Below, piece by piece: positions 37,813-43,667 of a stretch of DNA of 64,000 nucleotides. The DNA is taken from the NCBI GenBank assembly GCA_903850425.1, contig CAINLR010000031.1:1-64000 (forward strand), written 5' to 3'. The translations under genes were made by a program, and so were the position numbers. The notes under the pieces are model-generated. The model worked only from the letters and a program-made list of their open reading frames with translations. It was not told where the DNA came from and made no database searches. How positions within the stretch are numbered: position 1 is the first letter of the stretch; the number at the start of each line of letters is the position of its first letter. This stretch comes from an uncultured Verrucomicrobia subdivision 3 bacterium (GTDB lineage: Bacteria > Verrucomicrobiota > Verrucomicrobiia > Limisphaerales > UBA11358).

Positions 37813-38652
37813 ATGTCACAAGACCATCAGTTGCAACAACAGCGGTTCGAGCTCAAATATCTGGTGCCTGAGCCGGTGACGCTGGCACTGCGCGATTTCT
37901 TGAGCTGTCATTTGGAGTTGGACGATTTCGGCGTCGGCCGGCCGAATTTATCGTATCCCGTGCATAGCTTGTATCTCGACACGGACGACTTGATGACGCA
38001 TCAAGCCACGCAGAATGGTGACAAAAACCGGTTCAAGCTCCGACTGCGCTACTACAATGACGAGCCGGGGTCGCCGGTGTTTTTTGAGATCAAGCGGCGT
38101 GAAGCCAACTGCATTTTGAAACGCCGCTGTCCGGTGCGCCGCGACGCGGTGGCATTGATGCTCGCCGGGCAGATGCCCGATCTGGAGCAATTGCTTTCCC
38201 AGGAACCGCACCACCACGTCGCGCTGCAACAGTTCAACCAATTGCTGCTCAAATTCAATGCCCGGCCCAAAGCGCACAATAGCTACCTGCGCGAGGCGTG
38301 GGTCAGTCCGGAAAATAATTCCATCCGCGTCACCTTTGACCGCAGCATTCACATCGAACCGTGTTTCAAGACGGAGGCCGTCGTCGCCATGACGCGTCCG
38401 CTTCATATCTATGCCGAGGACGTGGTGCTGGAATTGAAGTTCACCAACCGGTTTCCCAACTGGTTCAAGGAACTCGTGCGGTGCTTCAATCTCATGCAAT
38501 TATCCGCCGCCAAGTATTCCATGGGCGTCACCCTGATCGGTGAGCATCGGTTCTACGAAAGCACCCATTTGCGCGAGTGGTCCGGCATGACCGCCGCCGG
38601 AAACTCCGAGGAAGAGTTATTCCCGGCCCCGGCCCCCGCCGCGACCAATTGA
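37813..38652 (+). CDS. VTC-domain protein (polyphosphate polymerase-like)
   Basis: A 279-residue member of the triphosphate-tunnel VTC family, whose yeast member VTC4 makes polyphosphate from ATP. Tunnel residues are visible as alternating charged strands: RFELKYLV (14-21), LYLDTDD, FKLRLRYY, VFFEIKRRE, KRRCPVRR and VLELKFTNRFPNWF. It begins a tight set with DUF4956 (6 bp later) and HlyD (overlap). The CotH-VTC-DUF4956 combination recurs in bacteria, suggesting the three act together at the membrane. The enzyme's actual product is not known for bacterial CotH-linked members. Confidence 0.85.
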   Translation: MSQDHQLQQQRFELKYLVPEPVTLALRDFLSCHLELDDFGVGRPNLSYPVHSLYLDTDDLMTHQATQNGDKNRFKLRLRYYNDEPGSPVFFEIKRREANCILKRRCPVRRDAVALMLAGQMPDLEQLLSQEPHHHVALQQFNQLLLKFNARPKAHNSYLREAWVSPENNSIRVTFDRSIHIEPCFKTEAVVAMTRPLHIYAEDVVLELKFTNRFPNWFKELVRCFNLMQLSAAKYSMGVTLIGEHRFYESTHLREWSGMTAAGNSEEELFPAPAPAATN

Positions 38653-38658
38653 TTTATT

Positions 38659-39345
38659 ATGAGCGACTGGTTTCTCAATGGCGATTTCGGCTCGGTGCCC
38701 ACCAACTATGCGGCGTTGATCATCGGCGTGCTGCTGGCGTTTGTCTGCGGCCATTTGATTGCGTGGACGTATATGTTCACCCACAACGGGCTTTCCTATT
38801 CCCGTTCGTATGTCAATACGCTGGTGCTCCTGCCCGTCATCGTCAGCATGGTGATGATGATTCTGGCCAACAATCTCGTGTTGGCGTTCGGGCTGATGGC
38901 GATCTTTGCCATGGTTCGTTTCCGCAGCACGCTGCGCGATACGCTGGATACGGCGTATGTGCTGGCGGTCATTGTGGTGGGTTTGGCCTGCGGCACCCTG
39001 AAATTCACCTCGGCCATTATCGGCTGCCTCGCCATCTCGGGCATCATGTGTTATCTGCGCTACACCGGCTTTGGCACCCGCCATCGGTATGACCTGATCT
39101 TGAATGTGCAATGGGTGCGTCCGGCGCTGGAATTGCCGGACCTGCTCAACTTGCTCCGGCGCCACAGCCGCGCCGTCCAATGCGCCAGTCAGCGCTCCAG
39201 CGAGAGCTTCGCGGGCATGGATATTTCCTACCGGTTGCTCCTGCGCGATCCGGCCCGCAGTCATGAAATGGTGGATGAAATCCGGGCCTTGAAAGGCGTC
39301 TCCCGCGTCACCAGCCTCCAAGCCGAGGATGAATCTGAATTATGA
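38659..39345 (+). CDS. DUF4956 membrane protein
   Basis: A 228-residue protein with about four membrane helices in the first half (ALIIGVLLAFVCGHLIAWTYMF, TLVLLPVIVSMVMMILANNLVLAFGLMAIFAMV, YVLAVIVVGLACGTL, IIGCLAISGIMCYL) and a soluble C-terminal domain of ~90 residues. MVRFRSTLRDTLDTAYVL after the second helix pair is the family hallmark. Family function is unknown; it is the usual neighbour of VTC and CotH genes and could be the membrane part of a polyphosphate or phosphoryl-transfer machine. Its stop overlaps the HlyD start (ATGA). Confidence 0.85.
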   Translation: MSDWFLNGDFGSVPTNYAALIIGVLLAFVCGHLIAWTYMFTHNGLSYSRSYVNTLVLLPVIVSMVMMILANNLVLAFGLMAIFAMVRFRSTLRDTLDTAYVLAVIVVGLACGTLKFTSAIIGCLAISGIMCYLRYTGFGTRHRYDLILNVQWVRPALELPDLLNLLRRHSRAVQCASQRSSESFAGMDISYRLLLRDPARSHEMVDEIRALKGVSRVTSLQAEDESEL

Positions 39346-40442
39346 ATAACGGTTTTCCCCCCATTCCTATTCCGGCGAGTCAGCACTGGCTCAATGCGCG
39401 CCTGCGGGTGGTGCCCGTCGTGGTTTTTGGCGCGGCGTTGGTGGCGATAGCGTTTTTGTGGGACGCCCACGTCGCGGCCCCCACGTTGGTCGGCCAGGCC
39501 GAGGCGCAGTTGGCGGCCGTGAGCAGCATCAAGCCCGGCACGCTGGTGGGCTTGACCGTGAGTCGCTTCCAAGCCGTCAAGGCCGGGGATATTATTGGTC
39601 GCGTTGTCACCACGGATCCGCAAGTGCTGGAAGCTTCGCTGGCGGTGATCCATTCCGAAATCGAGTTGCTGCGGGTGAACATGGGGCCCGTCGTCACCCA
39701 GCAGCGCAACGCGATTAATTTCGCACAAGTCAGGCTGGACTGGATGAAGGAGCGCGCCGGCCTCGCTGCCGCCCGCGTGAACTTGCAGTTGACCGAGTCG
39801 GAATGGCATCGCTCCGAGGAGTTGTTCAAAGCCAAGCTGGTGTCGGAAGCCAGTCGTGACACCGCCCAGGCCGCCTATCAGGTTTCCGTGCATGAGGTCG
39901 AGGAACTCTCGGCGCTGCTGACCGAGGGGGAAAAGAGTTTCAAGGATCTGCAAGGCACCAACAATAGCGACATCTCGATTGTTTCGGACGCGCCGCTGCA
40001 GGCCGCCATCGCCGTGCAGGAATCCAAACTGCGCCAGGTGGAGGCGGAACTGAATCCGGTCACGCTCAAGGCGCCGATTGACGGCGTGGTGGCATTGATC
40101 GAGCATTTCTCCGGCGAAGCCGTGATCGCAGGTCAACCCATCGTTTCGATTGCGGCGGCCGAACCGACGCGGATTGTCGGCTATGTGCGTTCGCCGTTAA
40201 GCGTCGAGCCCGCCGCCGGCGACCGGGTGGAAATCCGCACCCGCCGCCGGCATCGCGTGACGGCCTCCGCCCAAATCACGGCGATCGGCGCGCAGTTGGA
40301 AACGCTTCCCGCCGTGTTCAGTGCCGCCGGCCGGCTTGATCCCGCCCAACAGGGGCTGCCCGTGAACATCAGCCTGCCCGGCAATCTCAAAATCCACCCC
40401 GGTGAACTGGTGGACATCACGCTCCTGCCGCAAGCCAACTAA
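39342..40442 (+). CDS. HlyD-family periplasmic adaptor (membrane fusion protein)
   Basis: A 366-residue adaptor: one N-terminal membrane helix (VVPVVVFGAALVAIAFLWDA, about 24-43), a first lipoyl half (IKPGTLVGLTVSRFQAVKAGDII), a coiled-coil hairpin (about 95-220) and a second lipoyl half (TLKAPIDGVVALIEHFSGEAVIAGQPIVSI), then a beta-barrel. Such proteins normally link an inner-membrane pump to an outer-membrane channel, but no pump is adjacent. Its place as last gene of the CotH-VTC-DUF4956 set suggests it may bridge DUF4956 to the periplasm; this is speculation. Confidence 0.82.
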   Translation: MNNGFPPIPIPASQHWLNARLRVVPVVVFGAALVAIAFLWDAHVAAPTLVGQAEAQLAAVSSIKPGTLVGLTVSRFQAVKAGDIIGRVVTTDPQVLEASLAVIHSEIELLRVNMGPVVTQQRNAINFAQVRLDWMKERAGLAAARVNLQLTESEWHRSEELFKAKLVSEASRDTAQAAYQVSVHEVEELSALLTEGEKSFKDLQGTNNSDISIVSDAPLQAAIAVQESKLRQVEAELNPVTLKAPIDGVVALIEHFSGEAVIAGQPIVSIAAAEPTRIVGYVRSPLSVEPAAGDRVEIRTRRRHRVTASAQITAIGAQLETLPAVFSAAGRLDPAQQGLPVNISLPGNLKIHPGELVDITLLPQAN

Positions 40443-41243: not shown

Positions 41244-41344
41244 AAATCGGCTCGTTCTCCAACCCGTGAATAAACTCAATTGCCTTCCAATTGTGGACGT
41301 TACGCGTGCCGGGTTTGACACCTTCGCCAATGTTTGAGAGTGTC

Positions 41345-41497
41345 GTCTCGTATGCAGCCTAAGCTGGCTCGCCTTCCTGCGAGTCAGTGCGGGGGAACCA
41401 ACCCTTGGGAAACCAAGGATGGGGCTAACGCCGGTGGCGAACCACCGTCGCGGTCACTTTCAGGACCGAGCCCGTCAGCTAACCTCGTCGGCATCTG
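41345..41497 (+). ncRNA. ydaO/yuaA-type (cyclic di-AMP) riboswitch
   Basis: Two invariant blocks of the ydaO-yuaA motif are present: GCGGGGGAACCAAC (about 41389-41402) and CCGAGCCCGTCAGCTAACCTCG (41466-41487), followed by TCGGCAT closing against TATGC upstream. Between them is a GGGGCTAA-containing variable part. Ends are approximate. A perfect hairpin GATTTCGC-GTTT-GCGAAATC at 41514-41533 follows and may be the expression platform; no T-run follows it, so control could be translational. Downstream are a zinc-ribbon gene and an SPFH-protein gene. Confidence 0.85.
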
Positions 41498-41615
41498 GAA
41501 GGGCGATCCTCTGGATTTCGCGTTTGCGAAATCACCACGGTCTCCCCAATGAAACGCGTTGCCTTGTGGCGCGACGATAACTCGCGCCGTGATGCGACCA
41601 TGTCGGAGTCAAAAT

Positions 41616-41843
41616 ATGAACCCTGTAAAACCGTGTCCGGAGTGCGGGCAAAACAATCTGTTCGCCACCACGACAAATGCTGGCAGCGGTTACGGCCCGA
41701 TGTTGCTGCCCAAACTTGGTGGCTTCATCGTCCCAGCAACATTTGAGGTCGTTGTCTGCGCGGACTGCGGGTTGACGCGGTTCTTCGCCTCAAGCGAAGC
41801 GCGCAGTAAACTGGCCACCGCTAAAAAATGGGTTAGAAAATAA
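41616..41843 (+). CDS. Small zinc-ribbon protein
   Basis: A 75-residue protein with two CxxC pairs, CPECG near the N-terminus and CADCG near residue 52, framing a G/P/F-rich middle (SGYGPMLLPKLGGFIVPATFEVVV). This is a nucleic-acid- or protein-binding zinc ribbon. The ATG at 41616 has GGAG eight bases upstream. It is the first gene after the riboswitch and is followed 15 bp later by the SPFH gene, so the two should be co-regulated. Confidence 0.75.
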   Translation: MNPVKPCPECGQNNLFATTTNAGSGYGPMLLPKLGGFIVPATFEVVVCADCGLTRFFASSEARSKLATAKKWVRK

Positions 41844-41858
41844 GAAAGGAGTCGAGAT

Positions 41859-43667
41859 ATGAAAACAATTCTATTGGCATTCAGTGTCGGTGAATTCGGC
41901 ATTCACGTCGCGTGGTATTGGTGGCTGCTGGGTATGAGCGTGTTCGTATTATTCTCCAGCTTCGTGCTCATTCGCGAACGTCAGGTCGGCATCGTGATCA
42001 AGCGTTTCGCCGCCAAGTCGCTCCCGCCGGGACATCTGCTCGCGCTCGAAGGTGAAGCCGGATATCAAGCGGACACGCTCGCGCCGGGATTGCATTTCGG
42101 CTACTGGCCGTGGCAATACCGCATCATCAAAGTGCCGGTCATCGTCGTGCAGCAGGGCGAGATCGCTCTGGTCATGGCGGCAGATGGCGCAGCGATGCCG
42201 TCGGAGCACATCCTGGGCAAACGCGTCGAATGCGACAACTTCCAGGATGCGCGGAAGTTCCTGCTCTACGGTGGCGAGAAGGGTCGGCAACTCGGCATTC
42301 TCACCGGTGGCACTTATCGCATCAACACCGCGCTGTTCACGATCATCACGTCCGTAACCGCGCACGAGCACGGCATGTTGCCGGAGCAACTGCTCTTGCA
42401 ACGCGTCGAGTCCGACATGGTCGGAATTGTCACCGCACTGGATGGTCAGCCCATTGCGGCCAGTGAGATCGCGGGGCAGTCCATCGCCGGACACGACAGC
42501 TTCCAGAATGCACAGGCATTTCTGGATGGCGGCGGCAGTCGTGGTTTGCAGGAGCAAATCATTTTGTCCGGTGCGTGGAACCTGAATCCGTGGTTCGTGC
42601 AAGTCGAGCAAGTGCCGATGGTGCAGATTCCCATTGGCTATGTCGGTGTCGTGATTTCGTTCGTCGGCAAGGCGCACGAAGATGTGAGCGGCCTGGACTT
42701 CAAGCACGGCGACCTTGTAAACACTGGTCACAAGGGTGTATGGGTCACCCCATTGTATCCGGGTAAACATCCGCTCAACACGCGGGTGATGAAGGTTGAG
42801 CTCGTGCCCACGACGAACATCGTGTTGAACTGGGCGAACCGCACGGAGGCGCATAATTACGACTCGAAGTTGCAGTCCATCACCGTGCGCTCGAAGGATG
42901 GGTTCGCGTTCAACCTCGATGTGTCGCAGATCATCCACGTGGGCGCGCTCGATGCGCCGAAGGTGATCAGCCGCGTGGGCTCGATGCAAAATCTGGTGGA
43001 TCATGTCCTCCAGCCGATTGTCGGAAATTATTTCCGCAACTCGGCGCAGGACTTCACGGTGCTCGACTTCCTGAGCGCGCGCAGTCATCGGCAATTGGAC
43101 GCGGCCGAACACATCCGTGCCGCCATCGGCGCGTATGATGTGCAGGCGATTGACACATTGATCGGCGACATCAATCCGCCCGCGGAACTGATGACGACGC
43201 AGACGGATCGCAAGATCGCCGAAGAACAACAAAAGACCTACGAGACCCAGCGTGCCGCGCAGGAGCAGCGCCAGCAACTCGTGCGTCAAACCTCGCTCGC
43301 GGACATCCAGCAGCAGGTTGTCGGCGCGGAACAAGGCGTGAACATTGCCGAGCTGAAGGCCAACGCCAGTGTCAAACACGCGACCGGCGAAGCGGAAGCG
43401 ATTCGTCTCCGGGCGATCGGCGAAGCGGGCGCCATCCGCGCCACCGGCGACGCGAAAGCGCAGGCGTATCGCGCGGGCGCGGAGTCCATCGGCGTGCAAG
43501 GCTACACCGTCATGCAGATCATGCAGATCATCGGTGAACGCAACGTGCGCATTGTGCCGGACGTTTCCGTCAGCGGCACCAACGGCAGCAACGGCTTGGT
43601 GGATGGTTTGCTTGGCATCCTGTTGCGCGGCCAGAATAACGAGCAAAAGCAGACCGAAAAGAACTGA
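41859..43667 (+). CDS. SPFH-domain (flotillin/prohibitin-like) membrane protein
   Basis: A 602-residue scaffold protein. One N-terminal membrane helix (WYWWLLGMSVFVLFSSFVLI, about 17-36) is followed by RERQVGIVIKRF and an extended SPFH region in two parts (about 40-280 and 290-400, the latter ITVRSKDGFAFNLDVSQIIHV). A long alpha-helical coiled region follows (about 415-545, Gln/Ala/Glu-rich with repeated GEAEAIRLRAIGEAGAIRAT) and a C-terminal tail. Such proteins form ring oligomers that organise membrane domains. AGGAG lies before the ATG. A hairpin terminator follows. Placement downstream of a c-di-AMP riboswitch is unusual. Confidence 0.9.
   Translation: MKTILLAFSVGEFGIHVAWYWWLLGMSVFVLFSSFVLIRERQVGIVIKRFAAKSLPPGHLLALEGEAGYQADTLAPGLHFGYWPWQYRIIKVPVIVVQQGEIALVMAADGAAMPSEHILGKRVECDNFQDARKFLLYGGEKGRQLGILTGGTYRINTALFTIITSVTAHEHGMLPEQLLLQRVESDMVGIVTALDGQPIAASEIAGQSIAGHDSFQNAQAFLDGGGSRGLQEQIILSGAWNLNPWFVQVEQVPMVQIPIGYVGVVISFVGKAHEDVSGLDFKHGDLVNTGHKGVWVTPLYPGKHPLNTRVMKVELVPTTNIVLNWANRTEAHNYDSKLQSITVRSKDGFAFNLDVSQIIHVGALDAPKVISRVGSMQNLVDHVLQPIVGNYFRNSAQDFTVLDFLSARSHRQLDAAEHIRAAIGAYDVQAIDTLIGDINPPAELMTTQTDRKIAEEQQKTYETQRAAQEQRQQLVRQTSLADIQQQVVGAEQGVNIAELKANASVKHATGEAEAIRLRAIGEAGAIRATGDAKAQAYRAGAESIGVQGYTVMQIMQIIGERNVRIVPDVSVSGTNGSNGLVDGLLGILLRGQNNEQKQTEKN

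What the first reader, a model, noticed from the sequence alone, without database searches (positions are those of the whole stretch)
41345..43667. c-di-AMP (ydaO/yuaA) riboswitch ahead of a zinc-ribbon/SPFH-protein operon
Core blocks GCGGGGGAACC and CCGTCAGCTAACCTCG are those of the ydaO-yuaA class that binds cyclic di-AMP. Known targets are mostly potassium/osmolyte transport and cell-wall enzymes. Here the first genes are a small zinc ribbon and an SPFH (flotillin-like) scaffold. If real, c-di-AMP would control membrane-domain organisation, a link I do not know to be described.
Basis: partly seen in the sequence, partly recalled or inferred. Interest (0 to 1): 0.8.

Follow-up and report, generated by a model that had tools for sequence, protein, structure and literature searches.

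The report
c-di-AMP riboswitch controlling vault-like SPFH protein
An RNA switch that senses the bacterial signal c-di-AMP, best known for controlling potassium uptake, is in this group of bacteria consistently placed in front of a gene for a membrane-anchored, probably cage-forming protein, which suggests that this protein is made together with the potassium importers.

Summary
Observation confirmed. Window 41346-41508 is a full-length RF00379 c-di-AMP riboswitch (55.1 bits, cut-off 38), the only one found in the genome. It leads a two-gene operon: a zinc ribbon and a 602-aa SPFH protein. The same aptamer sits directly ahead of close homologues of this SPFH gene wherever upstream DNA is visible in Verrucomicrobiota (10/10 loci from species contigs, 10/10 in whole-genome relatives; the sets overlap partly) and in 0 of 70 loci from other phyla. 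A tree gives one riboswitch-bearing clade plus a second, separate origin on a distant SPFH gene. Other targets of this riboswitch here are mostly K+ importers (KdpA, Kup, KimA-like); several genomes carry one switch on Kup and one on SPFH. A diadenylate cyclase operon is present. The protein is not a plain flotillin: models show a membrane helix, beta-repeats matching major vault protein repeats, an SPFH core and a long helix, i.e. a membrane-anchored half-vault. Most likely an OFF switch lets it be made when c-di-AMP (K+/turgor) is low. Ligand binding, switch direction and dome function are inferred. No earlier report was found, but the two key surveys could not be read.

The parts
41315..41320 (+). 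TTGACA, putative -35 element of the promoter
   Evidence: TTGACA or TTGAC lies about 40-50 nt before the aptamer in nearly all leaders of the genus, SPFH and K+ importer alike; the -10 of the window copy is weak and the scan did not call a promoter, so this is inferred
41346..41508 (+). c-di-AMP riboswitch aptamer (RF00379)
   Evidence: 55.1 bits, E 4.8e-10, full length; core blocks the same as in K+ importer leaders
41496..41501 (+). UGGAAG, 3' tail of the aptamer that can pair with the CUUUCA loop (pseudoknot strand)
   Evidence: conserved in leaders; pairing inferred from the known class
41501..41546 (+). post-aptamer stem: GGG.GAUC (41501-41508) with GGUC.CCC (41539-41546) around hairpin 41514-41533; candidate expression platform
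   Evidence: same element behind SPFH, KimA-like, KdpA and Kup aptamers, inner hairpin with two-sided changes; no U-tract
41568..41588 (+). second leader hairpin GGCGCGA/TCGCGCC
   Evidence: direct sequence and folding; not tested for function
41605..41608 (+). ribosome-binding site GGAG of the zinc-ribbon gene
   Evidence: direct sequence; GGAG at the like position in most SPFH leaders of the genus
41616..41843 (+). 75-aa zinc ribbon (Lar_restr_allev-like)
   Evidence: Pfam 32 bits; below the NCBIfam cut-off; relatives in few loci
41859..43667 (+). 602-aa SPFH protein: membrane helix, vault-like repeats, SPFH core, long C-terminal helix
   Evidence: Band_7 102 bits; models and fold searches

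Best explanation
A genuine c-di-AMP riboswitch controls an operon whose conserved gene encodes a membrane-anchored, vault-like SPFH protein. Shown by computation: the aptamer, its fixed linkage to this SPFH family across Verrucomicrobiota, two separate origins of that linkage, and sharing of the same aptamer and post-aptamer stem with K+ importer genes. Inferred from the known class: c-di-AMP binding switches expression off, so the protein is made when c-di-AMP is low, i.e. under K+ or turgor shortage, together with K+ importers. With no terminator in sight, control is probably at translation initiation or through Rho. Inferred from SPFH biology: the protein assembles into a dome that rings a patch of membrane or particular transporters and so supports ion uptake or membrane stability.
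For: RF00379 at 55.1 bits. Linkage in 10/10 verrucomicrobial loci, 10/10 evaluable genomes among 59 relatives, 5 adjacent pairs in an even 288-genome phylum sample, 0 of 70 loci outside the phylum. Tree: one riboswitch clade of 21 (95/95) plus a second origin. Of 43 above-cut-off riboswitches in the 59-genome set, 10 precede SPFH and nearly all others precede KdpA, Kup or KimA-like/APC permeases. G047, G051, G052 and G054 have one switch on Kup and one on SPFH; G018 has two on KimA-like genes and one on SPFH. Core blocks are the same in SPFH and K+ leaders. Diadenylate cyclase gene beside ybbR and glmM. OFF logic of the class, and a terminator-less member that acts on translation in C. glutamicum (PMC9960051). 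[quoted passage not shown]
Against: No binding or expression data. The platform has no recognisable terminator and no consistent pairing with the ribosome-binding site, so direction and level of control are unproven. In this genome the SPFH operon is the only RF00379 target and the Kdp operon has none, so co-regulation with importers is seen in relatives, not here. SPFH is absent from most genomes of the genus, so it is not essential to K+ homeostasis.
Confidence: 0.7

Rival explanations
1. The riboswitch regulates SPFH as a general envelope-stress protein (osmotic or cell-wall stress, like bacterial flotillins), with no direct tie to K+ transporters.
For: c-di-AMP also governs a cell-wall peptidase in C. 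glutamicum (PMC9960051); SPFH proteins serve membrane surveillance in B. subtilis (PMC8581546, abstract); homologues in other phyla show no recurring K+ gene beside them, some lie beside ATP synthase genes.
Against: Within this phylum the genes under the same riboswitch are almost all K+ or cation transporters.
Confidence: 0.3
2. The riboswitch acts as an ON switch, or through another level, so that the dome is made when c-di-AMP is high.
For: No terminator and no clear platform logic in any leader.
Against: Characterised c-di-AMP riboswitches repress, and the same platform element stands before K+ importers, for which OFF makes sense.
Confidence: 0.12
3. The aptamer serves the zinc ribbon or is a relic; SPFH is there by accident.
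For: In L108 the same zinc ribbon follows a riboswitch without SPFH.
Against: Most relatives have riboswitch and SPFH without the zinc ribbon, and the pairing is kept over more than ten families.
Confidence: 0.03

Closest known systems
ydaO/yuaA c-di-AMP riboswitch (RF00379) ahead of kimA, ktr, kdp, kup
   Same: Aptamer class, core blocks, diadenylate cyclase in the genome, and in relatives the same K+ importer targets
   Different: The target is an SPFH protein; no intrinsic terminator as in B. subtilis kimA
C. glutamicum nlpC c-di-AMP riboswitch (PMC9960051)
   Same: Non-transporter target and no canonical terminator; translational control there
   Different: Actinobacterial cell-wall peptidase operon; here a membrane scaffold-type protein and a shared stem element behind the aptamer
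QmcA, HflK/C, stomatin, prohibitin, flotillin (SPFH domes)
   Same: N-terminal membrane helix, SPFH core, long helix; QmcA is the nearest solved sequence
   Different: About three extra beta-repeats between membrane helix and SPFH core
Major vault protein
   Same: Predicted repeat fold plus SPFH-type shoulder plus long cap helix
   Different: Membrane helix at the N terminus, fewer repeats, about 10% identity, no Pfam vault match

Membership tests
RF00379 c-di-AMP riboswitch | covariance score above the gathering threshold over the full model | tested here: met
   55.1 against 38 bits, positions 1-134 of 134
RF00379 c-di-AMP riboswitch | conserved core blocks intact | tested here: met
   GCCTAA, CGGGGGAACC, CCCGTCAGCTAACCTCG
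RF00379 c-di-AMP riboswitch | binds c-di-AMP | not testable with these tools
   needs in-line probing; a cyclase gene is present
RF00379 c-di-AMP riboswitch | controls the downstream gene | tested here: inconclusive
   same strand, no intervening promoter found, linkage conserved; no expression data
SPFH / Band 7 | Band_7 domain above the Pfam cut-off | tested here: met
   102.3 against 23.6 bits
SPFH / Band 7 | membrane-bound ring or dome assembly | not testable with these tools
   only a monomer was modelled
Flotillin | flotillin family match (Pfam Flot) | tested here: not met
   window protein has no Flot match; 4 of 40 homologues at best E 0.0095
Major vault protein | vault repeat fold | tested here: met
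   (predicted model only)
Major vault protein | recognisable vault sequence families in Pfam | tested here: not met
   therefore called vault-like and not filed as MVP
Major vault protein | 39-fold half-shell assembly | not testable with these tools
   needs electron microscopy

The most novel reading that the evidence does not exclude
A bacterial membrane-bound half-vault, built on demand under c-di-AMP control, encloses or corrals K+ (or other) transporters in the cytoplasmic membrane when turgor falls; it would be a regulated membrane compartment and a structural link between vaults and membrane SPFH domes.
Probability: 0.25. Interest if true: 0.88.

Novelty: new variant of a known kind. 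Interest (0 to 1): 0.62.

Why it matters
It adds a scaffold-type protein to the c-di-AMP regulon, whose known riboswitch targets are transporters and cell-wall enzymes, and the linkage is kept across many verrucomicrobial families and arose at least twice. It gives a physiological handle (K+, turgor, c-di-AMP) on an SPFH protein family that is found in many phyla and for which I found no described role, and it points to a vault-like architecture at a bacterial membrane that microscopy could test directly.

Tried and rejected
Intrinsic terminator as platform: none found. Pairing of the GGUCUCCC strand with the ribosome-binding site: fits several SPFH leaders by eye (CUCC/GGAG) but not KimA-like leaders, so not claimed. 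Stem energies of the platform are only mildly below shuffles (median z -1.3 over all leaders, -1.8 for SPFH), so the case for that stem rests on conservation. Kup, TrkH and KimA-like importers in the own genome: none found (the KimA query was a 116-aa piece, so a weak negative). Chance adjacency: rejected. Pfam vault families: no sequence-level match even at E 5. Neighbours of SPFH in other phyla: no K+ gene recurs. Block 2010 and Nelson 2013 are not in the library, so an earlier listing of SPFH/Band 7 among riboswitch targets cannot be excluded; no held paper combines c-di-AMP with SPFH, or 'c-di-AMP riboswitch' with flotillin, and the one holding SPFH and riboswitch is, by its title and abstract, on another subject.

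Full report
OBSERVATION. cmscan places RF00379 at 41346-41508, plus strand, 55.1 bits against a gathering score of 38, full length, the only Rfam hit in the window. It is also the only RF00379 hit in the 6.9-Mb, 96% complete genome. Behind it lie a 75-aa zinc ribbon (41616-41843) and a 602-aa SPFH protein (41859-43667) on the same strand, 15 nt apart, the second with a clear ribosome-binding site. The scan found no sigma-70-like promoter and no terminator-like site between the RNA and the genes.

HOST CAN PROBABLY MAKE THE LIGAND. One diadenylate cyclase gene (DAC, 141 bits) is present, and its flanks read as folP, cdaA, ybbR, glmM, the usual cdaA surroundings (neighbours named by eye from the translations). 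KdpA is present without a riboswitch; Kup and TrkH were not found.

LINKAGE IN RELATIVES. A search of species genomes with the SPFH protein gave 80 loci. All ten verrucomicrobial loci among them carry RF00379 ahead of the gene (45.7 to 64.5 bits); none of the 70 loci from Chloroflexota, Cyanobacteriota, Bacteroidota, Myxococcota and others does. In 59 whole-genome relatives the SPFH family occurs in 11; in all ten where upstream DNA exists, a riboswitch lies within about 350 bp on the same strand. The eleventh is cut by a contig end. Two of these genomes appear to be the same organisms as L002 and L003, so the two counts overlap. In an even sample of 288 genomes of the phylum, SPFH (E below 1e-60) occurs in 13 and RF00379 in 15 genomes, and five pairs are adjacent (G000, G143, G275, G236, G309). 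With about one riboswitch in twenty genomes of several megabases each, chance adjacency is negligible (inference). The tree of 62 SPFH sequences puts 21 riboswitch-bearing ones in one clade (support 95/95) and G236/G309, whose SPFH is only about 37% identical, far away, so the linkage arose twice.

REGULON. Of the 43 above-cut-off riboswitches in the 59-genome set I count by downstream gene: SPFH 10, KimA-like permease 16, KdpA 8, Kup 6, a Usp-bearing permease 2, and one ahead of a small membrane protein whose next gene lies outside the locus (representatives checked by Pfam, the rest by eye). In the phylum sample further targets are a sodium/hydrogen exchanger, a BBP2 porin and a citrate synthase. 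Four genomes carry one switch on Kup and one on SPFH, and G018 has two on KimA-like genes and one on SPFH. Aptamer core blocks do not differ between SPFH and K+ leaders. SPFH is therefore a regular member of a c-di-AMP/K+ regulon in this phylum.

HOW THE SWITCH MAY WORK. Nearly all leaders of the genus have TTGACA about 40 nt before the aptamer, so transcription probably starts at its edge. After the aptamer most leaders of all target classes share an element: the tail UGGAAG, which can pair with the CUUUCA loop as the pseudoknot of the class does (own knowledge), then GGG.GAUC pairing with GGUC.CCC around a hairpin whose sequence varies, with two-sided substitutions in three pairs. There is no U-tract. 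Known members repress on ligand binding (PMC6488665, PMC9337991, PMC9960051), and a terminator-less member in C. glutamicum most likely acts on translation. I therefore infer an OFF switch at translation initiation or through Rho; this step is not shown.

WHAT THE PROTEIN IS. Pfam sees only Band_7; E. coli QmcA is the nearest solved sequence. AlphaFold on a 40-sequence alignment gives a membrane helix, a long beta-rich region of high confidence, the SPFH core and a long helix (mean pLDDT 74.6, pTM 0.51). Foldseek ranks major vault protein first (E about 4e-12), then prohibitin, HflK/C, QmcA, flotillin. To see whether the SPFH core alone drives this, residues 34-322 were folded by themselves (pLDDT 88.8, pTM 0.80): the three matches under E 0.001 are all MVP (best E 3.1e-4), and VIA gives MVP Z 8.4 to 10.6 (best 197 residues, 4.4 A), while other SPFH proteins match mostly one short repeat (Z up to 6.7). 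By the alignments the ordinary SPFH proteins begin at about residue 254, so the stretch 36-253 is the extra part. This predicts a membrane-anchored half-vault; no assembly was modelled. [quoted passage not shown] A role around K+ transporters is a guess that fits the regulon.

NOVELTY. The riboswitch class is known and has been predicted ahead of K+ transporters in phyla including Verrucomicrobia (PMC6488665, citing Nelson 2013 and Block 2010). I found no report of an SPFH target, but those two surveys could not be read. I class it as a new variant of a known kind.

Noticed in passing
L127 1501-2772 (G206): An RF00379 riboswitch (86 bits) directly ahead of a citrate synthase gene, an unusual metabolic target.
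   Followed up: partly
L133 (G224) and L126 (G073): RF00379 ahead of a BBP2 outer-membrane porin and of a sodium/hydrogen exchanger.
   Followed up: partly
L108 1501-3163 (G035): A 75%-identical copy of the window's zinc ribbon sits between a riboswitch and KdpA, without SPFH; in L002 a 43% relative lies behind SPFH.
   Followed up: partly
L086, L087, L095, L108, L110, L152: A small membrane protein (about 150-180 aa, motif LRWRFGPGLI, no Pfam match in the one tested) sits between the riboswitch and KimA-like, KdpA or Kup genes in six genomes.
   Followed up: partly
L014, L016, L018, L024, L078 and L057, L061, L066, L068, L079: Homologues of the SPFH gene lie beside ATP synthase genes in cyanobacteria and in Flavobacteriales (and one Glaciecola record), at different points of the operon (genes named by eye).
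   Followed up: no
upstream of the aptamers in L007-L010, L128, L129, L131, L132: A motif like GTTCTTTGG lies just ahead of the aptamer in these leaders instead of the TTGACA of the genus; possibly another promoter type.
   Followed up: no
L164 (G032) and L166 (G047): The SPFH frame holds one in-frame stop (TAA, TGA) in these two genomes; assembly error or decay not resolved.
   Followed up: no
window 37813-40442: A VTC-domain gene (polyphosphate polymerase type) followed by a DUF4956 membrane protein and a HlyD-like protein.
   Followed up: no
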